A stretch of 64,000 nucleotides of DNA. It comes from a virus. A model generated the notes under the pieces. It made no database searches. It saw only the letters and a program-made list of their open reading frames with translations, and was not told where the DNA came from. The stretch spans positions 1-64,000 of IMG/VR virus record IMGVR_UViG_3300030329_004888, one strand, 5' to 3'. Shown piece by piece: positions 17,580 through 58,220 of this stretch (position 1 is the stretch's first letter; each line of letters begins with the position of its first letter). Position numbers and translations under genes: made by a program.

Positions 17580-17594
17580 TATGCCCTACACAAC

Positions 17595-17649
17595 ATCTGG
17601 TATGCGGGCCTGGGCCCGATTCGGGATAAAACCACAAGATATTGGGGTG
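17595..17649. repeat. 55-bp dispersed element, copy 1
   Basis: This 55-base segment matches the reverse complement of 23091-23145 at about 44 positions. The best-kept part begins ATCTGGTATGCGGGCCTGGG. Read in the late (minus) direction it ends 16 bases before the start of the 908-residue gene. Copy 2 lies upstream of the early promoter in the same orientation relative to its downstream genes. Confidence 0.7.
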
Positions 17650-17837: not shown

Positions 17838-19961
17838 TTAGCTACTCCTCATAGTTTCGGCCGCTTCAACCTGCGCGGCATCGCTTATCCGCTGCGCGTT
17901 GCTGGCTACCTGCCCCTGAAGGTCAAGCCCCATAGACGGCGATCCGCCGCCTCCCGCAGGTTGGCCCATCGCATTTTGTTGCTGCTGCTGCTGCGCTTCC
18001 GCATGCCCTTGGATGTGCTGCGCTACTACCGCGTCAATCTGCTGGATCTGCTGCTGTGCCTGCGGATTGAGCGGACGTCCCGCCGGGTCTGTCATCTGCG
18101 CCGCTTGCATTAATTGCATATACGCCGGGTGATCTCGATACATATTGTGCGTGTCTGTGTGCGTCGGATGATCCTGTTCGATCAAGACATCGGTGTCTTG
18201 CCCATTCATAAAGCGGTCGTTTTCAAGCTGTGCCGCCCGCTGTGCTTCGACGTTGACATCAGAGACCATCAGTTTTTCGACGTCGATGACGTCAAACGCT
18301 GACGCCATGGCCTTATCGAGTTCGACCTGGTCGAAGTTGGGCCGGTTAGCGGCCCGGTCGTAGAATGCCAGGAAACGGTCTTGCTCGAGCTGCTCATATA
18401 ATGGTTGCGTCGATCCGACGCGAGAATGGATACGGAAATTCCACAGAAAATCACTTGTCCGCAGTGCTCTGACGATTTGTGACGCGCCCTCCGGGGCCAC
18501 GTTGATCGTGAAATCTTCCGGCGTGTAGCGCGGATCGCCCATAATCTGAAACGCGTTGCGAACCACCATTTCATACGCTTGGGAAACCTTAGCCTCCATC
18601 CAATTGCCGTTTAGCTGGGCGGCTGCGGCTACTACCGCAGCTTCCGTGGCCGTGTCGGATTCTCCCGGCGCTGGCGGCTGCACAGCGGCGATCTGATCCT
18701 CATACGATAACAGCGACTGCTCGTGAGCATACAGATCAGGAGGGACCGAGGAATATGAAAGTTCGCGGATGGAGTTGATGTCCTGAACCGTCTGAAACTC
18801 GCCGTCTCTCCCCGCCCGCAATTTCTCTAAAATCTCAGGATTGGCCAAGACTTCGCTTTCGGCGACAACTCCCTGCCGCGCCGTACGTTTCAAAAGATCA
18901 CTGCGACGGCTGATCTGCTCGATGATCCCCGCTTGGAGATCCTCGAGATACGCCATCTGTCCCATCGGATAAAACGACGCCGAGTGCATATCAAATTTGA
19001 TCGGGACAAAGGGAAATCCGTTCTCGACAAGCCAGCCTGCCGCCGGGATCCCTCCCTCGATGTCAAGCACTGGCTCGCTCAATTCGCCTGTCTCGTCTTC
19101 CGCGAATATCAGATTGCCGACCGAGTCGATCATCTGGGGGAACGAGCGCTTGATAAACGGATGCTCTTGCTCGAGGATCGGATCCTCGACTCCGTCGGCA
19201 AACATGATCAACCGGCGCCCTATGCGATCATGGATACGATCCACCAATACAAACTCGCCGTTGTCGATCGACTCCTTCAAAGCTTGGCGCTCCTCTGTAT
19301 CGGATTGCGCTCCCATTACCTCCCCGAACATCAGATCGTCCGCCGAATTCCCGGCCGCAGTTGCCGATAGCTGCCTCTTGTGCTGGACGTTCGGATCGTC
19401 GCGGAGGAACTTCAGTGGCATCCACATTTTCTCCCGAATGTAGCGGGCATGCCCTAACCGATGGGGCGGACACGCTGGATCCAGATGCACACATCCAGGA
19501 GCTACTCGAGACACCGCGACCATGTCATCGGCCATGTCGTCATTGGCAATATACGGAGCGATCATCGTGTCGCCTGGAGGGTTGTAGTCCAGCCGTAGCC
19601 AGCCGACCCCGCAGAACAACGCGTCAAAAATAGCCTGATGCATATGATCTCGGACGTTAGCAAGACGGAAAAATGCCGCGCTCGCTCGCTCGAGCAACTC
19701 AGCGACCTGGTCGCCTTCCTCGTCCTCGATCAAGAAAAATTGCTTGGGATACCGAAAGGCAATCGTGCTGATAATCTGGCGGACAATCGGATAAAACCGA
19801 GACACCCGGACAATATCGCTCGGCTGGAGATCCCGAATGCGCTCATCGAATTGGAGGTCGTATAGATCCACCAATCGCTGCCATTCCGCCATGCGCCCCC
19901 GGTAGAGACGGTCCAGCGTCTTCATCTCGTCTGCCCAGAATGCCAGCTCTTTTTTATTCAT
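17838..19961 (-). CDS. Portal protein, left genome
   Basis: 707 residues, overlapping the large-terminase stop by ATGA. Homologous throughout to the right portal (52122-54224): both start with an aromatic, charged helix and a WQRLVDLYDLQF against WRRLIGLYKLEF segment, share SRFYPIVRQIISTIAFRYPK against SRFYPLTRLIITSTAFNYPK, and have a Gln-rich C-terminus with an Asp/His segment. It forms the ring through which DNA enters and leaves the head. Size and gene order (terminase-portal-capsid) agree. Confidence 0.85.
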   Translation of the reverse strand: MNKKELAFWADEMKTLDRLYRGRMAEWQRLVDLYDLQFDERIRDLQPSDIVRVSRFYPIVRQIISTIAFRYPKQFFLIEDEEGDQVAELLERASAAFFRLANVRDHMHQAIFDALFCGVGWLRLDYNPPGDTMIAPYIANDDMADDMVAVSRVAPGCVHLDPACPPHRLGHARYIREKMWMPLKFLRDDPNVQHKRQLSATAAGNSADDLMFGEVMGAQSDTEERQALKESIDNGEFVLVDRIHDRIGRRLIMFADGVEDPILEQEHPFIKRSFPQMIDSVGNLIFAEDETGELSEPVLDIEGGIPAAGWLVENGFPFVPIKFDMHSASFYPMGQMAYLEDLQAGIIEQISRRSDLLKRTARQGVVAESEVLANPEILEKLRAGRDGEFQTVQDINSIRELSYSSVPPDLYAHEQSLLSYEDQIAAVQPPAPGESDTATEAAVVAAAAQLNGNWMEAKVSQAYEMVVRNAFQIMGDPRYTPEDFTINVAPEGASQIVRALRTSDFLWNFRIHSRVGSTQPLYEQLEQDRFLAFYDRAANRPNFDQVELDKAMASAFDVIDVEKLMVSDVNVEAQRAAQLENDRFMNGQDTDVLIEQDHPTHTDTHNMYRDHPAYMQLMQAAQMTDPAGRPLNPQAQQQIQQIDAVVAQHIQGHAEAQQQQQQNAMGQPAGGGGSPSMGLDLQGQVASNAQRISDAAQVEAAETMRSS

Positions 19962-21343
19962 CCTGCGTATCTGTATTGGTTATCGTCATTACTCAGTAGT
20001 CGATCGATTAGAGTTTGCCCATCGCCGCTCGGACGCACGTCTGCGCGTCGCGGTCGGTAGACATGGTTGATACCGTATCGGAGCCCGTCGGCAGGGTGGT
20101 CATCGCCCCCCTTCTCGACGTCCTCGGCATTGCGTGAACATCGTTGCACCGTCGCCAGGCTTTCGACCACGCGATCTGTGCGGTGCCGGAAAAACTTGAT
20201 CCGCCCGGAATACATCAGATCCTTGAGATTGCGCCAGCCGGTTATCCGGTCGGCGTTCGCCCGCGTCAAATGGATGCCCTCGGCCTCGAAGGAGTCCTTG
20301 GGCGCCTTGGCCTGCGACGCCTCTCCCGGAGCTCTGCGTGTCCACATGTCCGGAGGCGCCAAGTGCAGCCGGGGCCGGTGCCGCAGATATGGGCAGTTGT
20401 CGATCATCGCTGCGATTGCTCGAGCGTGATCTGCTCCGCCCGCCCCGGCACGGTAGTATTCATCGATGACCCAAACGGAATCATCGTAATCAACGGCGAT
20501 GAGCCCCGCCCATGTGGGGTTGGACTCGCCATAGTCCATGCACGAAAATACCGACCACGTTGACGGAATCTCGAACCCGTCAACGACGGCGTCCTTCCGA
20601 GAAAACATCGAAAAATAGTTGCCGATGACAGCGTCCCAATCGCCATCCTTCCAAGCTTTGATCAGCTCCGGGTCGCCGAGGTTCTCCAGGCGCTGCTCGT
20701 ATCCCGGATCCCGGCCGAGGCCCAACTTGTTATCGGTCAGCTTCGACGGCACAAACATCCGAACCATCCCGGAGTCGGAGTCCTGAAGCGGGACCATCCC
20801 CTGCGGGTAGTCTCCGATCCCAAAGTATTCTTTGATCTCATTATGACAACGACCTCCTGGGTTGCCAGTGGCCCGTATCCGTTTATTCATTGCTGCGCCA
20901 CGCAACCGAGAGGTCATCATCCGATAGGGTGTCAACGTCTCCCAACTGGGGAGCTCGTCCCATCCGATCCAGCTCAGGCTCCACCCCATGTATTTTGTAT
21001 AGTCCTGCTCTCTCTCGAGGTGCCGCAATCGCAACACGGCTCCTCCGGGGAATTTCCAGGTGTATTTGCCAACCAGATACTCGCCCCCGCAATGCGGGTA
21101 GATCTCATGAGAGCGATCGATGATCTCCTCGAGATCCGGGTAGGAAAGTCGAAACAGAACCCCTTTCCACTTGGATCCCTGGTCAAGATCCTGCGCGAAA
21201 TCGCCGAGCAGAAAATCGCTCTTACCGCCAAATACTGCGCCGCCGTAGAACAGCTCATCAACAGCAGATCCCATCCATACGGCGGTTCGCTGCGGTCCTG
21301 GCTGCGCTGCCCAGCTATACTGTTCCGGAGGCTCTTCGATCAT
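19958..21343 (-). CDS. terL: Terminase large subunit, left genome
   Basis: 461 residues. ATPase half: Walker A GGAVFGGKS (34-42), Walker B ending WDE (128-130) and coupling motif ATGNPGG (158-164). Nuclease half: SCMDYGES with Asp270, then VWVIDEYY around 291-297 and DDHPADGLRYG near the C-terminus, giving the usual acidic triad. It pumps and cuts DNA at the portal. Walker A departs from the right copy (GGARGGGKT) at two positions. No clear ribosome site precedes ATG 21343. Confidence 0.92.
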   Translation of the reverse strand: MIEEPPEQYSWAAQPGPQRTAVWMGSAVDELFYGGAVFGGKSDFLLGDFAQDLDQGSKWKGVLFRLSYPDLEEIIDRSHEIYPHCGGEYLVGKYTWKFPGGAVLRLRHLEREQDYTKYMGWSLSWIGWDELPSWETLTPYRMMTSRLRGAAMNKRIRATGNPGGRCHNEIKEYFGIGDYPQGMVPLQDSDSGMVRMFVPSKLTDNKLGLGRDPGYEQRLENLGDPELIKAWKDGDWDAVIGNYFSMFSRKDAVVDGFEIPSTWSVFSCMDYGESNPTWAGLIAVDYDDSVWVIDEYYRAGAGGADHARAIAAMIDNCPYLRHRPRLHLAPPDMWTRRAPGEASQAKAPKDSFEAEGIHLTRANADRITGWRNLKDLMYSGRIKFFRHRTDRVVESLATVQRCSRNAEDVEKGGDDHPADGLRYGINHVYRPRRADVRPSGDGQTLIDRLLSNDDNQYRYAG

Positions 21344-21387: not shown

Positions 21388-21825
21388 TTAGTCAGTGTAT
21401 TCCGCGATCCTGTTTTGTGCTGTTTGCGGCGCCAATGCCGCCTTCAACTCCTCGAGCGATGGCCTCGCCTCCTGCTTAACCGCTCTGTAGGAGATCGGCT
21501 CGCCATCGATCCCGGTCAATTCTACACGATCGGTAAACCCTCGGCGACCATGCTGTGTTTTCAGGTAGAATTGGATTGCGGGAAAATGGCCCTCCCGAAC
21601 CAACTTGTGCAGCTGCCCAACTGCCTCGTCGCCGACTTTCTCTCGAGCAGCATCGACTGCCTTGCCGAGCTCGGGGAATCTGCGGATGTAGTCGTAGATC
21701 GTCAACCTCTGGCACCCCAAGACCTTGGCAACGGCAGTCAGATTGCCATCGCATCGGACGATCTCCTTCTCCATTTGCTTGACGTCGTATTTCAGCGGAT
21801 GCTTCTGAGGCATGGCATTGTTCAT
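21388..21825 (-). CDS. Terminase small subunit-like DNA-binding protein, left genome
   Basis: About 145 residues from ATG 21825 (the open frame extends to 21912). The N-terminal helix-turn-helix (NLTAVAKVLGCQRLTIYDYI) is followed by a helical region and AIQFYLKTQHGRRGF, a pattern common in phage small terminases and related regulators. It is the first gene of the late block and sits 44 bases upstream of the large terminase. The role, recognising the packaging site, comes from position and HTH. Confidence 0.68.
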   Translation of the reverse strand: MNNAMPQKHPLKYDVKQMEKEIVRCDGNLTAVAKVLGCQRLTIYDYIRRFPELGKAVDAAREKVGDEAVGQLHKLVREGHFPAIQFYLKTQHGRRGFTDRVELTGIDGEPISYRAVKQEARPSLEELKAALAPQTAQNRIAEYTD

Positions 21826-21978
21826 CTGTTTAGAGGTTTTACGGCGCTGGCGGGCCGGATTTTGACGTCCTGCCCCCCGCCAGCGCGTCACCAGGAGGAA
21901 AGCCGGTCGCAAGGGCTTTCATGTGATACCTGAACAATACATCAACCGCATAGTATGGCGCAAGCGCTGTTTGACCGC

Positions 21979-22110: not shown

Positions 22111-22363
22111 TTAACGCCTCTGAGCGGCAATAACGCGTATGCCCCGGGGAATAGCACAGCGCTATGTAGCGTGTGACCTCCCTAACCCCCAAGCCCATGG
22201 CCGACACAACCGATGCTATGGGAAAACTTTTCCGGGGCAGAATGGGGGCAGAATCACCGATGTCCCATACAACCTCTTAATCTACAACACGTTACATCCA
22301 AAAAGACGCTCGAAGCCAGGGCAGAATGGGGGCGCTTTTTTACAACACCTAACCCAATGCACT

Positions 22364-22499
22364 ACAACACCTTACGTAGATTCGGGGCGGAAAGGGCGCG
22401 TTTCTCCGACCTTTAACCTATATAACGTAAAATATATTTCTATAGGACTTTATATAGGAAAACAGGCCCTTTTGTCCCTAACACAACGTAAGGTGTTGT
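22364..22499. repeat. 14-bp inverted repeat pair
   Basis: ACAACACCTTACGT at 22364-22377 is the exact reverse complement of ACGTAAGGTGTTGT at 22486-22499. Related TACAACAC strings occur just upstream. The spacer is AT-rich and contains TATAGGA twice. Confidence 0.85.
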
Positions 22500-22516
22500 T
22501 TTTACTCGTTTGAGGG

Positions 22517-22583
22517 AGGGCCAAATGAGGGCCAAATGGGGTTTTTTAGGGGCCAAAAGGGCGCTTTCTGGTCAAAGGGGCGC
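22517..22583. repeat. GGCCAAANGGG motif cluster
   Basis: Related motifs occur at 22517-22527, 22528-22540, 22548-22564 and 22570-22583, with a fifth at 23165-23180 (AGGGCCAAAGGGGCGG). Their density in a gene-free region suggests protein binding sites or iterons. Confidence 0.6.
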
Positions 22584-22631
22584 ATCTTCCTGAGAGCTAC
22601 CTCTCAGGATTTTTGTCCCTTTTGTCCCCAA

Positions 22632-22671
22632 GGGTACCTCCTCTTTTTTAAAAAAACGAGAGGAGGTACCC
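22632..22671. terminator. Bidirectional hairpin, copy 1
   Basis: GGGTACCTCCTC pairs with GAGGAGGTACCC (12 bp), with a T6/A6 pair inside the loop. It is repeated at 23002-23041 with one change. It may act as a terminator in either direction or as a boundary of the module between the two copies. Confidence 0.75.
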
Positions 22672-22711
22672 TTCTTTGTCAAAGTTATGCCCTGCCAGGG
22701 GGGAGACCGGC

Positions 22712-22764
22712 GAGATACCGTGACATACTCCAGGTCTGTGCTTGGAGGCATGTCACGGTATCTC
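22712..22764. repeat. 53-nt hairpin with a perfect 15-bp stem
   Basis: GAGATACCGTGACAT (22712-22726) pairs exactly with ATGTCACGGTATCTC (22750-22764). The 23-base loop adds CTCCA/TGGAG pairing. It is not followed by a T run, so it is not a standard terminator. Confidence 0.9.
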
Positions 22765-22841
22765 TTATATGTGTTGATCCCTCCGGATCGAGTGCAACCG
22801 TGCAACAGTCCCCCCTCCTACCATGAGCCGAGGGGCTGCTG

Positions 22842-22979
22842 CAAGTGTTAGGTCCGCTAGGACCACTGTAGGACAACAACTTACGGAGGATACAGAAGTG
22901 TTAGAACCGGAGCGTCCTAACACTTCTGGAAGAGACGCAAGTGATTGGGAGACAACGATCCTAACGGACCTAACACTTG
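22842..22979. repeat. 138-bp concentric nested inverted repeats
   Basis: The outer arms (22842-22862 and 22959-22979) are inverted copies with one mismatch and contain CAAGTGTTAGGTCCG. The inner arms AGAAGTGTTAG (22894-22904) and CTAACACTTCT (22917-22927) are exact. Both pairs share one centre at 22910.5. Each arm carries AAGTGTTAG, giving two direct and two inverted copies, as expected for an initiator or repressor that binds cooperatively. Confidence 0.9.
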
Positions 22980-23001
22980 TATAGACCGCTACGATCCAAA
23001 A

Positions 23002-23048
23002 GGGTACCTCCTCTTTTTTAAAAAAACGAGAGGAGCTACCCTTTTTTT
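23002..23048 (+). terminator. Hairpin copy 2 with T run
   Basis: Same 40-base hairpin as 22632-22671 except one base in the 3' arm, here followed by seven T residues (23042-23048), so it has full rho-independent terminator form on the plus strand. Confidence 0.8.
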
Positions 23049-23090
23049 ATCAAATAAAAAAAATAATCTCATATTGTGCTGGCCGAAACG

Positions 23091-23145
23091 CACCACAACA
23101 TGTTGTGGTTTTTGACACTTTCGGCCCCAGGCCCGCATACCAGAT
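23091..23145. repeat. 55-bp dispersed element, copy 2, with a palindrome and T run
   Basis: Reverse complement of 17595-17649 with about 80 percent identity. It contains the perfect palindrome CCACAACATGTTGTGG (23093-23108) followed by five T residues. GGCCGAAA (23081-23088) and TTTCGGCC (23119-23126) bracket it and could form an outer stem. Confidence 0.7.
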
Positions 23146-23208
23146 AGAGTGTATGTTTTCGAGGAGGGCCAAAGGGGCGGATTTCTTCAAGATATTATTC
23201 AAAATCCC

Positions 23209-23238
23209 TTGACGTATGCAATACTGCATAGTTATATT
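23209..23238 (+). promoter_or_regulatory. Early promoter with operator palindrome
   Basis: TTGACG (23209-23214), an 18-base spacer, then TATATT (23233-23238). The spacer holds TATGCA-ATAC-TGCATA, the same architecture as the promoter at 26388. It would drive the genes from 23312 and is probably controlled by the XRE repressor at 26051-26314. Confidence 0.75.
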
Positions 23239-28163: not shown

Positions 28164-28236
28164 TCGATGGGTGCTCCGGGGTTGAGCGACAGTGCGAGAC
28201 CTCGGGGCCCCGTTACCATCAAGGGAGCAATCCATA

Positions 28237-28851
28237 ATGGACAAATCAGACGCCCTGCTGGAGCATGCGCTACGATACGCAGAGATAGGATGGGCAGTAT
28301 TCCCGTGTTCACCTCGAGGGAAAAAGCCCGCGATCTCAGGCGGTCGCGGCTGCTTGGACGCCACAACTAATATCGACCAGATCCGCCATTGGTGGGGGCA
28401 GAATCCTGAGCTCAACATAGGACTGGCTACTGGCGCCCCCAGTGGCGTAGTTGCCGTTGACATCGACAGCCGAACTAATGGACACCATTTCTGGCAGGCC
28501 GCTCTCGATGATCACGGAGATCTGCCCGACGGGGTGTGGATCAGCTTGACCGGCGGCGGAGGATGGCATCATTTTTTTGCGTACGACAACCAAGCTAACT
28601 ATGATATTGCGCCAGGTGTCGAAATCAAATCGACCGGTAAATACGTAATCCTGCCGCCGAGCATACACCCAACCGGAAATGCGTATCTTTGGAACTTGGA
28701 TCACACACCTTTCACCGATGACTACGATACTACTAATGACAACGACCACACCGACAAACAACAACCCAGTGCCGATGCCGCCGTGGCTACGACAGATGAT
28801 ACCGTCCATCCAGATTTCGGACGACTCCGAACCTCGCCGCCCGTCACATAA
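28237..28851 (+). CDS. Primase-polymerase (Prim-Pol, PF09250-like)
   Basis: 204 residues from ATG 28237, with AAGGGAG upstream (the frame is open from 28192). Prim-Pol landmarks: the N-terminal ALRYAEIGWAVFPCSPRGKK-type opening, GGRGCLDAT, the catalytic acidic pair in VVAVDIDSR, SLTGGGGWHHFF, and the GVEIKSTGKYVILPPSIHP segment. It makes primers or copies DNA for phage replication. The frame ends in an Asp/Asn/Thr-rich linker that overlaps the helicase frame, whereas relatives usually have both parts in one protein. Confidence 0.8.
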   Translation: MDKSDALLEHALRYAEIGWAVFPCSPRGKKPAISGGRGCLDATTNIDQIRHWWGQNPELNIGLATGAPSGVVAVDIDSRTNGHHFWQAALDDHGDLPDGVWISLTGGGGWHHFFAYDNQANYDIAPGVEIKSTGKYVILPPSIHPTGNAYLWNLDHTPFTDDYDTTNDNDHTDKQQPSADAAVATTDDTVHPDFGRLRTSPPVT

Positions 28852-30685
28852 TATTTTCGATCGAGCTCTGTCAGGTGAGTTACCCGATCTGGCGGCTACA
28901 GTCCCGCCGGAAGTCGAGCGATACGGACAGTCTGTATTGACAGCAGCGATGGATAGTATCCGCCGAGCGCCAGCGGGAGAGCAAGAGGAAACTCTCAATC
29001 GATCGGGATATCGCGTAGGACAAATAGTCGGCGCCCATGCGATCAACGCTGAGGCAGCGCGAGGCGCTCTCCTGCAAGCGGCTGCTGAGATGCCTGTCCA
29101 CAACCCGAGCGACCCGTGGACTACCGGATTCCTCTACTACAAAATCTCACGGTCGATCAGTCACGGCGCCCTCGATCCAGACCCTATTGGAGGCATCATG
29201 ACACGTCGGCCATCGGACCCGGCGTATGCCTCTACGCCCATCGTCCCGCCAGGGGGGCCTGGTCCCCATCCCCCCATGACAGACATGGGTAATGCCGAGC
29301 GTTTTTGCGAGCGCTGGCAGGAGGAGCTCAAATACTGCACCGAGCTCGCCAAGACGGAGCTCGGGGGATGGATGAGGTGGAATGGGCGCCATTGGCAAAT
29401 CGATGATCTGCTGGGCGTCCAAGAGCTGGCGAAGGATTGCGTTAGGGCTATCGCGCAGGAGTCGCCCCCGGTCATGGGCCCCCCAAAAATGGTGCAGGGG
29501 CTCGCGGTTGACGAGGGTAAAAACCTGACTGCCGAATGGGCGAAAAAGTGCGAGGACGAGACCCGCTTATTAAAGATGATGAGGCTGGCACGATCGATAC
29601 CCCCTATGCCGGTACACGCTGACGCGTTCGACGCGAAGCCAGATCTATTTAACGTCGAGAATGGGACTATCGATTTGAGCAGCGGCACGTTGCGTAGCTC
29701 GAGGCGCACTGATCTCCTCACTCAGTGCGCCCCAGTAACGTATGACGCGGATGCTCAATGCCCTCAGTGGCTGGCGTTCTTGTCCCAGTGCATGCGTGGG
29801 AATGACCGGCTGGTCGAATTCCTCCAAACGTGGGCAGGATACTGCCTGACAGGATCAACGATCGAGCACAAGTTGGTCATCCATTACGGCGAGGGGAGCA
29901 ACGGCAAATCGACGTTCTCTGATGTCTTGGCAACTCTCATGGGACCATATAGCGCAACCGCGGCGGCGAGCTCGTTTATGATTTCATCGAAAGGCTACGA
30001 GGACAACGCCCGTAACGATCTGGCAGCATTGCGATCTACTCGCTCGGTAGGAGTAGTTGAAACTAATGAGACTGACGCCGTTAACGAGGCCCTGCTAAAG
30101 AGGGTCACCGGCGGCGATCCTATAACCGCTCGATTTTTGCATCGTGAATTTTTTACGTTTGTTCCAGGGTTCAAGGTGTCCATGTCTACTAACACCCTGC
30201 CCAACATAGCGGGGATGGATTACGGCACATGGCGGCGCATCTGCTGTATCGAGTGGGGCGTTGTATTCGGCTCCGCGGGAGCTCCTGCGGTAGACAAGGC
30301 CCTCAAAGAAAAATTGCTAACAGAGTTGCCGGGGATTCTGAACTGGGCGCTCGAGGGATGCCGGATATGGAGGACCAATGGGTTATCCATTCCTCCTGAG
30401 ATCGCTGCCACGACCGCCAACTATAGAGAGTCCCAAGATATCTTGGGGCCATTTATCGAGGAATGTTGCGTTGTCGATCCCAATCAAACAGAGCAACAAA
30501 CCCGAATGTATGAATGCTACTTCGCGTGGAACACACACAAAACTATGGGTAAGAAACAATTCTTCGAGCTCTTGTCACAACGCCCAGGAATAGCGCGGGG
30601 GAAATCACAGGGGTTCCGGATCTTCCGCGGCATAACTATCTCGGAGGAGGCCGGGATGCGGTATGTTTCGGATCGATCGTATTGA
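28679..30685 (+). CDS. D5-type replicative helicase (SF3-like), second half of a primase-helicase
   Basis: Open frame of 668 codons, +1 relative to the Prim-Pol frame. Residues about 105-165 (ETLNRSGYRVGQIVGAHAI, then ARGALLQAAAEM) match the region that follows Prim-Pol in fused proteins. A D5_N-like section follows, then Walker A GEGSNGKST (404-412) and later STNTLPNI and RRICCIEW segments of the D5/P4 primase family. Unwinds DNA at the fork. No ATG in the overlap has a good ribosome site, so the start is uncertain: 28718, 28736, 28775 and 28796 are candidates, and frameshifting is possible. Confidence 0.78.
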   Translation: MRIFGTWITHLSPMTTILLMTTTTPTNNNPVPMPPWLRQMIPSIQISDDSEPRRPSHNIFDRALSGELPDLAATVPPEVERYGQSVLTAAMDSIRRAPAGEQEETLNRSGYRVGQIVGAHAINAEAARGALLQAAAEMPVHNPSDPWTTGFLYYKISRSISHGALDPDPIGGIMTRRPSDPAYASTPIVPPGGPGPHPPMTDMGNAERFCERWQEELKYCTELAKTELGGWMRWNGRHWQIDDLLGVQELAKDCVRAIAQESPPVMGPPKMVQGLAVDEGKNLTAEWAKKCEDETRLLKMMRLARSIPPMPVHADAFDAKPDLFNVENGTIDLSSGTLRSSRRTDLLTQCAPVTYDADAQCPQWLAFLSQCMRGNDRLVEFLQTWAGYCLTGSTIEHKLVIHYGEGSNGKSTFSDVLATLMGPYSATAAASSFMISSKGYEDNARNDLAALRSTRSVGVVETNETDAVNEALLKRVTGGDPITARFLHREFFTFVPGFKVSMSTNTLPNIAGMDYGTWRRICCIEWGVVFGSAGAPAVDKALKEKLLTELPGILNWALEGCRIWRTNGLSIPPEIAATTANYRESQDILGPFIEECCVVDPNQTEQQTRMYECYFAWNTHKTMGKKQFFELLSQRPGIARGKSQGFRIFRGITISEEAGMRYVSDRSY

Positions 30686-33303: not shown

Positions 33304-33729
33304 TTAACTTGTGGCATAGTAAATTTTTTGCAACCAGCTAACACTATTTGCAAGTGCCCACATTATCGCCGCAGTGACCAAGGCGTCATTGAAATAAGGC
33401 TCCCATTCGGGACCACCTGGATACCCAGTCGTTTGCCACCAGTAAAAAAGACTGGTATAGCAAAATGCTGCAACACTTGAACTGACGGCAGATTGCCTTT
33501 GGATACTTGCGGCCTGCTCCGATTTGGTGATCAAAAAATCTACATTACGCTGCTTCTCTTTTACCTCAGCCCGTGTGCCGGTTAGCTCCTTGCGGTCGTC
33601 TTTGCTTGTGGCAAACGCTAACTGCCTCTCACGTTTGCATCGTTCAAGCTCAGATAACGCTCGCTTGTATTCGTCTCTGATTTCGCCGAATGAGCTGAAC
33701 TGGTTAGGGTCTTTGAATTTACGCGCCAT
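33304..33729 (-). CDS. Coiled-coil protein with two membrane segments (141 aa)
   Basis: Residues 20-75 form a charged coiled coil (EYKRALSELERCKRERQLAF). The C-terminal half has two hydrophobic segments (SSSVAAFCYTSLFYWW and ALVTAAIMWALANSVSWL). It starts one base after the stop of the 28-residue gene. A spanin- or holin-like role in lysis is possible from context. Confidence 0.55.
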   Translation of the reverse strand: MARKFKDPNQFSSFGEIRDEYKRALSELERCKRERQLAFATSKDDRKELTGTRAEVKEKQRNVDFLITKSEQAASIQRQSAVSSSVAAFCYTSLFYWWQTTGYPGGPEWEPYFNDALVTAAIMWALANSVSWLQKIYYATS

Positions 33730-33730
33730 C

Positions 33731-33817
33731 TCACATTGAGATCAGGAGTTGCCATACCGTCGCTACGCCAATTATGGCTATCACGCCTCCTGAGATTAGT
33801 AGTACCTTTTTAATCAT
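33731..33817 (-). CDS. 28-aa membrane microprotein in the lysis cassette
   Basis: ATG 33817 overlaps the upstream stop (ATGA), and its own TGA is followed one base later by the ATG of the next gene. Sequence: MIKKVLLISGGVIAIIGVAT, then a short hydrophobic end. One membrane span with a basic N-terminus. Tight packing supports translation; a lysis role is inferred. Confidence 0.6.
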   Translation of the reverse strand: MIKKVLLISGGVIAIIGVATVWQLLISM

Positions 33818-34059
33818 CTACCTAATGCCGCATCCTCTTCAGCCTGTCGCACGGCTCTATTTTTATAATTTCCTGCTGCCAACTTTCGATCATATTCTGG
33901 ACCCCACTTCGCAACTTTGCTGGCCAGTGCCTTCTCGCTATCAATAGCGCGACCTCCGTCATCCCCATTGCGAGAACAGACGTGATTCCACCAGTCGTCG
34001 GGACTGATGACTACATGCGCTAACACGACGCTCTCTCTACTTGTTAATGCTCGTGGCAT
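33814..34059 (-). CDS. Late protein of unknown function (81 aa)
   Basis: AAGGAAC precedes ATG 34059. Tryptophan-containing start (VISPDDWWNHVCSRNGDDGG), then a basic helical end. It is the first gene after the fibre and leads the lysis cassette. No family recognised. Confidence 0.55.
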   Translation of the reverse strand: MPRALTSRESVVLAHVVISPDDWWNHVCSRNGDDGGRAIDSEKALASKVAKWGPEYDRKLAAGNYKNRAVRQAEEDAALGR

Positions 34060-34077: not shown

Positions 34078-37000
34078 TTAAGTTCCTGTACTGGCGGTCA
34101 ATAGATGCCCCTCAAATCGTGAATGTGCCATCACTCGCACAAGAGCAGAACCCTGTCCCCGAAACTCAACTGTAACATGGGCAGTATCCCCTCTCTCCAT
34201 ATCGGCTACGCAGGAGCCGTTAAATGTCTGGCCACCGAACGGCCAAGTGTTGTTGCTTATCTCGCCGCTGTGCCAAATTATGTAGCTGAAATTACTGGTG
34301 ACTATGTACGACATAGCCTCATTGGTGTCGGTTGTGATACCGTCAACCATTATGGAGGCCATGAAAAAATACCGACCATCAACCGGAGCGGTAAATACTC
34401 CATTGACTTGATCGGCCCCCACATCCCACCGCTCTTGGTTGAATACGGCTGTATAATTAGTGGCATTTCCGGTGACACCGGCTAAGTGGCCATCGTTATA
34501 TGCCATAAATGACGGATGCTGAGGAGTGTCTATTACCACAAGGCCGTCTTCATCAGCTGATCCAGCCACCGTTAATCCAGTAGTAACAGTCCCGTCGTTT
34601 TCGGCAACGGAGAAAGTCATTCTACCAGCTTCGGTGCCACTTCCTGTCTCAGCTGCATCTACTAAAATTCTGGCATAATGTTGTGAAGCTGGAGTCCCAT
34701 CATCTATGCCTTTAAAATCAATCTTGCCAACATGATCTGCATCTACTCCGTCTACGCCAGTACCTCTGGTTTTCTTGAATGTAAGAACTCCAGAAGAAGC
34801 ACTATTGTGTTCGTTGTAAATCAGCAACTCTGGAAGATCACCACTGCCAGTGTTGAAAAGCTGAAGCTTGGCATTACTGTCCTCGTCCCAAGTTAATCCT
34901 GACGATACGTTAAGAACGGTAGCAGCACTACTGTTATAAGCAAGTAACCCCGTATTAGTAGAGCCAGTGGTACTAACGCCACCTGCAGCCGAAGTCCAGT
35001 CCAGATTACCAGATCCATCCGTCTTCAAATATTGATCTGCACTGCCATCAGCCGTCGGGAACTCCCATGCTACACCGGCTGAACTGAGCTTTAAAGCTGT
35101 GCCTGATGCTGTCCCAAGTCCCTTGGCATCGGTGACACGCACAACTTCCGTGCCATCATACTGCTGAAAAACGATGTCCTTGGCATCCTGCAAAGGCTTA
35201 ATTATTACATTGTTGCTTGAATTGGAAATTCTCAGAAGATCAGTGCCCCCATCTGCATACTTGATACCCTCTGTAGCTGTATCAGAATCAAGGGTAATCG
35301 AATCCACGGTATCTAAGGTTATAGCCCCTGAATCGCTACTGTCATCCGTAGTAGTAATGGAGTATACACCGGCTGAACTGACTGCATGAGTTACATATTC
35401 CTGTGCGTCGTATTTGAGGATTAATGGGGCAGTGGTGTCCGTGGCCGTAATTGCAGCTGACGTGATTGTACTGCCCACTGTCATGGCCCCATCGGCTTGA
35501 ATTACGCCCGCCCCAGAGATCGTCGCTCCAGTGTCGCCATATCCTCCACCAAATGTGGCACCCGCCGTGCACACCAATGAGGCCAGAGTAGCAGCCCCCG
35601 TAGTAGCCAGAGTGCCCGAAGTAGTGACGCCACCACCATCCGCTATCGTAATCGCGTTATCACCATCAGTATAGCCGATACTTGCCGTTTGTACTTCGCC
35701 GCCAACTTTTAGGTCGCCAGATACATCGACTCGCGTAGAAGCATTAAGATCAATAATCGCCTCACCGTCTATACGCAGTGTGCCATCTGCTGACTGTTGA
35801 ATGAAGCTCGCCGCATCACCGAAAGTGAGTTTGTTGGTAGAGTTAAGCGTTAGGCCTGTGCCATCTGTATGCGTAAGCGAGGTGTCCAGGTCAGCGCCAA
35901 ACTCAAGCACCGCAGAGTCAGATTTAAGTTGAACATCATTTACAAATATTGCATTGCCCTCGTCACTGCCGTCGAATGTCACTGCTGTGACTGCTGACCC
36001 ACCGTCGTCAACTTTAATAATTACATCAGCATCGTTGGCCTGGGCATCTATCGTAATATTGCCGCTGGTTGTAACCAAGCTAACTGCGGCATCGCCAGTG
36101 GCTATATCATCTGCCGCAGTTGCCGATGTCAGCGCCCCTATGTCACTGGCCACCTCGGTGCCAGTGCGGTAATCAACGTTGCCGCTGCCATCGAGGACCA
36201 GGAACTTATCAACATCACTCCCTGCCGCTGCCACCGAGCCTATCGTCAACGTGCTGGCCGTAGTAACGCCGCCGCCGTCTGCTATCGTAATGGCATCGTC
36301 GCCATCGGTGTAGGCGATTTTAGTTGTCTGCACCTCTCCAGGTACGTTTATGCCAGCGGCTGCATCCAGAACCTTCAGATTGGTTGCATCGCCATTGTCT
36401 GTAAAAACCAGATCCTTGCCATTGGTTGCCAGCTTGATGGTAACGTCCCCGCTGTTGCCTTCCGTGAACCGCAAGACCTCGGTGCCAGCGTCTTTGAATA
36501 TATGGATCCCGGTATGAGCATCGAGCGTCAGATTACCGCCTGAGTCCACTGTAATGGGCGTGGCCGCTATTGTTACCCCGGTGGTTCCGTCGTGAGTCAA
36601 GGTGACATCGTTGCCAGCGCCCATCGACAGGACAGCACTGTCAGAACCAAGGGTCACATCGTCTCCTACGGACAGATCGCCCACAACCTCAACTAATCCA
36701 GCCTGCGATATACGCAGTCGCTCTGTAGTGGAATTGTCTGTATCGGCAGTAGTCGAGAACACAAGCTCAGTAGGCAAGTCATTCGCGCCCGGAGAGCCGT
36801 TTACTCGAGCAAGCATCGATGCCCCCGGTGTGGCAAAGTCTCCACTGCTGCCAGTTACGTCACAACCATAAAAATAAATGCCGCCCAAAACATCATTGTC
36901 TACTACGGCTCCCTTGCCCCCAATTGTCCCGTCGCGTGACTTTGCAAAATTAATCTGACCCCCGGAGGCATCAGCGGAAAACCGTCCCACCAACAGTGAA

Positions 37001-57659: not shown

Positions 57660-58220
57660 ATTATTTGGCTGTAAATACCATGAGGGTGAGAGTGGTGATA
57701 ATATTTGGGGTGTATAGCCAGGGCCCGGGTGTTCCCCTGTCGGGTTCACCTTCGGTGAATGCAAAACCATAAAATTGCTCCGGCTCCTAGCTACTGCCCA
57801 CATGAGCACTGCTAATTCAAGCACTACTGCCCTAATGGGCATCATTGAATGCCTATTGGATATGGTTGGTAGTAGGCAAATAATTTGCCCAATGTGTGGG
57901 TTATCTTGCCTAATGTGTGGGTTGTTGTGGTTGCTTGGGTAGGCCTTGGGTAGGTCTGAATTGATAGGCCTATAGGTACAACCATAGGCCTATTGGTTAG
58001 ATGATTAGATATGTCTAATTAGTAATACTAATACCCCATCTAATCCTATTCCTATAGCGCCCATACCTATAGGCCTATTAGGTACCTATATAGGTACCTA
58101 TAGGTACTGCTGTTCATATAGGCCTATCTAATAGGCCTATACAAAACAAATAATTAAGTACATAAAAATAGGCCTATAGGATAATCCTATAGGCCTATCG
58201 GTTAAAGGTTAGTAGGCGTG
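57660..58220. other. Gene-free, repeat-rich region of the right genome
   Basis: No convincing gene. It holds two copies of AATGTGTGGGTT (about 57889 and 57914), a run of GGTACCTATA-type motifs around 58080-58105 and the seven ATAGGCCTAT copies listed separately. It is strongly AT-rich on the right half. Position between two leftward units and repeat content fit a replication origin or control region. Confidence 0.65.
57964..58198. repeat. Seven copies of the palindrome ATAGGCCTAT
   Basis: Exact copies start at 57964, 57984, 58069, 58118, 58131, 58168 and 58189, with spacings of 20, 85, 49, 13, 37 and 21. Shorter relatives (CCTATAGG, GGTACCTATA) lie between them. Irregular spacing and the ten-base palindromic unit rule out CRISPR and point to iterons or operators. 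Confidence 0.92.

What the first reader, a model, noticed from the sequence alone, without database searches (positions are those of the whole stretch)
22632..23041. 410-bp module bounded by twin hairpins and filled with nested palindromes
Two 40-base hairpins (39 of 40 identical) bracket a 53-base hairpin with a perfect 15-bp stem and a 138-bp set of concentric inverted repeats with four AAGTGTTAG sites. The module contains no gene. The symmetry and insulation suggest a replication origin, a partition-like site or a structured RNA, and I know no standard phage element of this form.
Basis: partly seen in the sequence, partly recalled or inferred. Interest (0 to 1): 0.75.

Follow-up and report, generated by a model that had tools for sequence, protein, structure and literature searches.

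The report
Stem-loop flank of phage replication origin
The palindrome-packed stretch is real, and it most likely forms the stem-loop side of the place where this marine phage starts copying its DNA; the starting site itself looks to be just to the left, and the exact job of the 410-bp part is still inferred.

Summary
Twin hairpins (39/40 identical), a 15-bp-stem hairpin and a 138-bp concentric dyad lie where stated. The dyad is the strongest 66-nt-arm dyad in the 64 kb (48/66 pairs; mean 16.4, sd 3.6), and the module folds 12-14 sd better than shuffles.

The module is not isolated. It abuts an array of G-rich iterons (22234-22629, plus 23166-23180). That array holds a second concentric dyad (22360-22503) with inverted iterons around an AT-rich centre. 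The phage encodes a Prim-Pol and a P4-family SF3 primase-helicase whose model ends in a winged-helix-like fold and resembles the SaPI5 primase-helicase. Relatives carry inverted iterons and hairpins at the same place. Among 60 other D5-helicase loci the top repeat cluster lies just 3' of the helicase gene in 34 (5.4 expected), and the four strongest dyads lie there too.

I conclude that 22.2-23.2 kb is the replication origin and that the module is probably its stem-loop flank. A structured RNA read leftward is the main rival: the 138-bp dyad has 7 G-U pairs on that strand and 0 on the other, but I found no promoter. The module has no detectable homologue, so pair conservation could not be tested.

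The parts
22234..22629 (.). Array of G-rich iterons of the form GGGNC(N)AAN(G)GGGG in both orientations (about 10-11 bp between G-runs): 22234, 22319, 22384, 22467(-), 22518, 22529, 22549, 22569, 22617(-)
   Evidence: Pattern scan: 43 matches in the window against 24.9 expected, 14 of them in this 0.4-kb stretch and 1 more at 23166; regex 11 of 16 hits in 22.1-23.3 kb
22360..22503 (.). Candidate core origin: concentric dyad with outer arms ACAACACCTTACGT/ACGTAAGGTGTTGT, inner inverted iterons, AT-rich centre CCTATATAA...TTATATAGG
   Evidence: Second-best 66-nt-arm dyad in the window (39/66); 41/72 pairs in best register; TACAACACCTTACG sites at 22283, 22341, 22363, 22487(-) and 22872
22570..22627 (.). 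Iteron - 9-bp hairpin (22588-22609) - inverted iteron stem-loop that abuts the module
   Evidence: Inverted repeat I4; terminator-like tail TTTTTGTCCC on +
22632..22671 (.). Twin hairpin, left copy (stem 22630-22673)
22712..22764 (.). 53-base hairpin with perfect 15-bp stem
22842..22979 (-). 138-bp concentric inverted repeat with four AAGTGTTAG sites; folds best as the - strand (54 pairs, 7 G-U) against + (47 pairs, 0 G-U)
23002..23041 (.). Twin hairpin, right copy (stem 22998-23045); followed by TTTTTTT on +, so terminator-like for rightward transcription
23092..23109 (.). Perfect 18-bp palindrome ACCACAACATGTTGTGGT, operator-like
   Evidence: I19; a 63-bp element holding it has a diverged reverse copy at 17587-17649
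23166..23180 (+). Single right-hand G-rich iteron GGGCCAAAGGGGCGG
23209..23238 (+). sigma-70-like promoter for the rightward early genes
   Evidence: TTGACG-18-TATATT, 10 of 12 matches; chance frequency is high
28192..28851 (+). Prim-Pol domain protein (putative initiator primase)
   Evidence: PF09250 E 2.7e-35
28679..30685 (+). P4-family D5/SF3 primase-helicase with predicted C-terminal winged helix (putative origin-binding initiator)
   Evidence: PF08706 4.4e-27, TIGR01613 257 bits against cut-off 108.7, AlphaFold model H-E-H-H-E-E at 590-654, Foldseek to SaPI5 primase-helicase 7ola

Best explanation
The region 22.2-23.2 kb is the replication origin of this phage, and the 410-bp module is its right-hand stem-loop flank. 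Shown from sequence: inverted iterons around an AT-rich centre at 22360-22503, a second iteron-hairpin unit at 22570-22627, then hairpin, hairpin, concentric dyad, hairpin. Also shown: the phage encodes a Prim-Pol and a P4-family SF3 helicase with a predicted C-terminal winged helix. Inferred: the helicase binds iterons through the winged helix, assembles as hexamers at the dyads, melts the AT-rich core, and the large stem-loops exposed on one strand help loading or give the Prim-Pol a priming site. The twin hairpins also carry T-runs on the + strand, so they may additionally stop rightward transcription from crossing the origin.
For: Iterons are concentrated here. Dyads at 22910, 22431, 22598 and 22651 are the best in 64 kb, the last tied with one in phage B's array at 58104. 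A TACAACACCTTACG-like site of the core recurs inside the 138-bp dyad at 22872. Relatives have inverted iterons and hairpins at the same place, upstream of the small terminase: L012, L024, L009, L010, L030, L032; L032's record has a D5 helicase. Cultured D5 phages AcaML1 and phi105 and Methanoculleus virus L4768 have iterons directly after the primase gene, L4768 with a long perfect stem-loop. Of 60 other D5 loci with enough 3' sequence, the top repeat cluster lies within 0.9 kb 3' of the helicase in 34 (5.4 expected); the strongest 40-nt-arm dyad does so in 19 of 53 (4.8 expected) and the four strongest of all lie there. L130, L151 and L098 show concentric inverted iterons of 83-228 nt like the 138-bp dyad; L098's iteron is AAGTGTCCT. 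Initiator. Literature: pRN1 needs a 100-nt stem-loop and its authors propose the same for Prim-Pol/SF3/winged-helix phages (PMC4234260); PICI origins are two iteron sets around an AT-rich site (PMC6092414).
Against: The G-rich iterons do not occur inside the module itself, so its membership of the origin rests on adjacency and architecture. No relative carries this module. The G-U bias of the 138-bp dyad is expected for an RNA or single strand rather than a duplex binding site. The origin is not directly 3' of the helicase gene as in most D5 loci. Phage B in the same contig has a palindromic array at the same place but no D5 helicase in the record. GC skew changes here, but gene orientation also does.
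Confidence: 0.55

Rival explanations
1. The module is a structured non-coding RNA made from the minus strand (toward the late genes): a separate small RNA or the folded leader of the late transcript, for example a processing, antitermination or replication-control RNA.
For: The 138-bp dyad pairs as 28+4+7+15 bp with 7 G-U pairs on the minus strand and none on the plus strand; 7:0 has probability about 0.0005-0.004 under neutral decay of a perfect repeat. Minus-strand fold of the module is the stronger one, -224.6 against -195.7 kcal/mol. The remaining mismatches are gathered in three symmetric internal loops.
Against: No promoter-like site on the minus strand near 23.05-23.3 kb. Terminator-like T-runs of the hairpins face the plus strand. 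No Rfam match. Iteron palindromes of relatives also show strand bias (0:4 in L012, 0:3 in L024). The 53-base hairpin and middle part show no such bias. A folded single DNA strand would give the same bias.
Confidence: 0.27
2. The module is mainly a transcriptional insulator: tandem rightward terminators (22588-22609, 22632-22671, 23002-23041) that keep transcription out of the origin or the early genes, with the inner palindromes serving as repressor operators.
For: Right twin hairpin is followed by TTTTTTT, left by TTCTTT, 22588-22609 by TTTTTG on the plus strand. The locus separates divergent late and early operons.
Against: Does not explain the 138-bp dyad or the 53-base hairpin. AAGTGTTAG is found nowhere else in the contig, so no other operator of the same kind is seen. 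Intrinsic terminators do not need 40-base near-identical copies.
Confidence: 0.1
3. The module is a non-autonomous mobile element whose ends are the twin hairpins (as in IS200/IS605-derived elements) that landed in the origin region.
For: Near-identical palindromes in direct orientation at both ends, no gene inside.
Against: No second copy in the contig, none of the hairpin in IMG/VR or in 84,980 species genomes, none in plasmids. Similar duplicated hairpins occur inside the origin of L012. No empty site can be shown because relatives do not align here.
Confidence: 0.05

Closest known systems
Stem-loop origin of Sulfolobus plasmid pRN1 and of phages BIP-1/BPP-1 (PMC4234260)
   Same: Prim-Pol plus SF3 helicase plus winged-helix initiator; a long stem-loop of about 100 nt in non-coding DNA with little sequence conservation.
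   Different: pRN1 has one stem-loop close 3' of the initiator gene and no iterons; here there are several stem-loops, an iteron array, and the locus is over 5 kb from the Prim-Pol and helicase genes.
PICI/SaPI replication origins (PMC6092414)
   Same: Two sets of iterons around an AT-rich site; initiator of the same helicase fold (SaPI5 primase-helicase 7ola).
   Different: Those lie immediately 3' of rep; no large non-iteron stem-loop module is described in the passages read.
Satellite phage P4 alpha protein with its iteron origin
   Same: Helicase is of the P4 primase C-terminal family (TIGR01613); P4 alpha binds origin repeats through a winged helix (as reviewed in PMC4234260).
   Different: P4 alpha has a Toprim-type primase; here the primase is a Prim-Pol encoded as a separate overlapping ORF. 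P4's separate crr site was not compared.
RSF1010 oriV with ssiA/ssiB priming hairpins (described in PMC4234260)
   Same: Iterons beside stem-loops that may be priming sites.
   Different: RSF1010 uses RepA/RepB'/RepC, not a Prim-Pol/SF3 initiator. Here the twin hairpins are direct repeats; whether that differs from ssiA/ssiB was not checked.

Membership tests
Iteron origin of a P4/SaPI-type (D5/SF3) replicon | Initiator with D5_N/SF3 helicase of the P4 family in the same genome | tested here: met
Iteron origin of a P4/SaPI-type (D5/SF3) replicon | C-terminal winged-helix DNA-binding domain | tested here: met
   Model residues 590-654 H-E-H-H-E-E, pLDDT about 90; prediction only
[quoted passage not shown]
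   22360-22503
Iteron origin of a P4/SaPI-type (D5/SF3) replicon | Position directly 3' of the initiator gene | tested here: not met
   Origin candidate 22.2-23.2 kb, helicase gene ends at 30685; repeat scan of the contig lists no cluster 3' of the helicase. Relatives of this phage share the position near the small terminase
Iteron origin of a P4/SaPI-type (D5/SF3) replicon | Initiator binds iterons and drives replication | not testable with these tools
   needs binding and replication assays
pRN1-type stem-loop origin | Prim-Pol + SF3 + winged helix initiator | tested here: met
   on two overlapping ORFs rather than one
pRN1-type stem-loop origin | Large stem-loop whose structure is conserved in relatives | tested here: inconclusive
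   Stem-loops of different sequence at the same place in relatives; this module itself has no homologue
pRN1-type stem-loop origin | Integrity of the stem-loop required for replication | not testable with these tools
   needs mutants
Known structured RNA family (Rfam) | Match above the curated score | tested here: not met

The most novel reading that the evidence does not exclude
The module is a new, densely folded phage RNA of about 400 nt read leftward beside the replication origin, bracketed by twin hairpins, that controls origin firing or the switch to late transcription.
Probability: 0.2. Interest if true: 0.65.

Novelty: new variant of a known kind. Interest (0 to 1): 0.42.

Why it matters
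Origins of Prim-Pol/SF3 phages are hardly mapped. This locus, with its relatives, suggests a general layout (concentric inverted iterons plus large stem-loops) that could be used to locate origins in uncultured phages, and offers a compact case to test whether stem-loops are for helicase loading, priming or RNA.

Tried and rejected
Rfam at gathering and permissive thresholds: nothing above a family cut-off. tRNA/tmRNA: none. Homologues of the module by blastn in phages and plasmids, by nhmmer/blastn in the loci fetched up, and by hairpin patterns in IMG/VR and species genomes: none, so no covariation test was possible. Terminase relatives in genome contigs: none. GC skew: uninformative because it coincides with the change of gene orientation. 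Mob/Pre-type relaxase: no match, but the control genomes did not ring either, so rolling-circle use is not formally excluded. One blast match of the origin region to L012 (22216-22238, 91% of 23 bp, E 0.009 and 0.07) is too weak to prove homology. Partition site: no evidence sought beyond gene content.

Full report
Observation. The twin hairpins differ at one of 40 positions, while the bases just outside them have diverged, so the hairpins themselves look constrained or recently duplicated. The 138-bp dyad is the strongest in the window (48 of 66 pairs, mean 16.4, sd 3.65), and the module folds 12.4 (+) and 13.9 (-) sd better than shuffles. AAGTGTTAG occurs only there.

Setting. The window is most of a 69,507-bp virus record that appears to hold two related tailed phages in tandem. 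The module lies in phage A, in a 1.3-kb gap between the leftward packaging genes (small terminase-like protein 21388-21864, PHROG match 6e-6; large terminase 19958-21343; portal-like 17838-19961) and the rightward early genes. The early genes include a Prim-Pol (28192-28851), a D5/SF3 helicase (28679-30685) and RusA.

What surrounds the module. The same gap holds a G-rich iteron in both orientations: 15 of 43 pattern matches in the whole window fall in 22234-23180, against 24.9 matches expected in all 64 kb. Two of these iterons face each other around an AT-rich centre, inside an outer pair ACAACACCTTACGT/ACGTAAGGTGTTGT; this concentric dyad, 22360-22503, is the second best in the window. A further iteron-hairpin-iteron unit (22570-22627) touches the left end of the module. 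One more site related to the outer arm lies inside the 138-bp dyad at 22872.

Relatives. Terminase relatives at 72-74% identity carry, at the same place, different sequences with the same design: GGGGGCGTTAGGGGCGCTTT-like units in L012 and L024, TTAGGGTAGTTAGGG in L009 and L010; the more distant L030 and L032 have GACCAGTAAA. L032's record also has a D5 helicase. In cultured D5 phages AcaML1 and phi105 and in Methanoculleus virus L4768, inverted iterons follow the primase gene, in L4768 together with a long perfect stem-loop. In 60 D5-helicase loci from IMG/VR the top repeat cluster lies within 0.9 kb 3' of the helicase in 34 (expected 5.4), and the strongest dyad in 19 of 53 non-identical ones (expected 4.8), including the four strongest. 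L130, L151 and L098 have concentric inverted iterons of 83 to 228 nt. These counts use simple repeat and dyad scores, chosen after seeing the first examples, and the loci are not phylogenetically independent.

Initiator. The helicase exceeds the cut-off for the P4 primase family (257 against 108.7 bits). An AlphaFold model from 25 sequences (mean pLDDT 76; helicase part about 90) ends in an H-E-H-H-E-E domain, the order of a winged helix, and matches the SaPI5 primase-helicase (TM 0.66 on the target). Published work shows that pRN1, with the same domains, needs a 100-nt stem-loop and proposes the same for phages (PMC4234260), and that PICI origins are iterons around an AT-rich site (PMC6092414).

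Mechanism. Best reading (0.55): origin, with the module as its stem-loop flank; helicase binds, hexamers load, AT-rich core melts, exposed stem-loops help loading or priming. Only the anatomy is shown; every step of action is inferred.

Main rival. The 138-bp dyad makes 54 pairs with 7 G-U as the minus strand and 47 with none as the plus strand. Under neutral decay of a perfect repeat a 7:0 split has a probability of 0.0005-0.004, depending on the transition bias, though a difference of 7 or more in either direction has 1-9%. This favours a folded single strand, RNA or DNA. Against RNA: no minus-strand promoter found, plus-facing T-runs after the hairpins, and milder strand bias in iteron palindromes of L012 and L024. 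Mutation bias could also produce it.

Limits.

Noticed in passing
window 1-64000 and L018: The 69.5-kb record seems to hold two related phages in tandem: terminase, portal-like and several other genes occur twice at 30-46% identity, and the contig's two ends (1-215 and 69401-69507) match 34424-34638 (94%) and 33722-33828 (98%). This looks like a chimeric assembly or a cointegrate.
   Followed up: partly
window 57847-58204: Phage B has a palindromic array with 14 copies of AGGCCTAT at the equivalent place before its packaging genes, although no D5 helicase was found for it.
   Followed up: partly
window 28192-28851 and 28679-30685; L092 4071-4640(-) and 2356-4134(-): Prim-Pol and helicase are separate overlapping ORFs in two phages but fused in L091; overlapping genes or a programmed frameshift rather than a sequencing error.
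   Followed up: partly
window 23091-23153 and 17587-17649: A 63-bp element with an 18-bp palindrome upstream of the early genes has a reverse copy (78%) just upstream of the 908-aa leftward gene; possible shared operator or promoter.
   Followed up: no
L078 751-1150: Very dense repeats (13 copies of CCTGACCG in 400 bp) just before the iteron region of this relative.
   Followed up: no
L047 5851-6000: Extremely stable hairpin at a contig end (-110 to -118 kcal/mol in 150 nt), perhaps an assembly artefact or a terminal structure.
   Followed up: no
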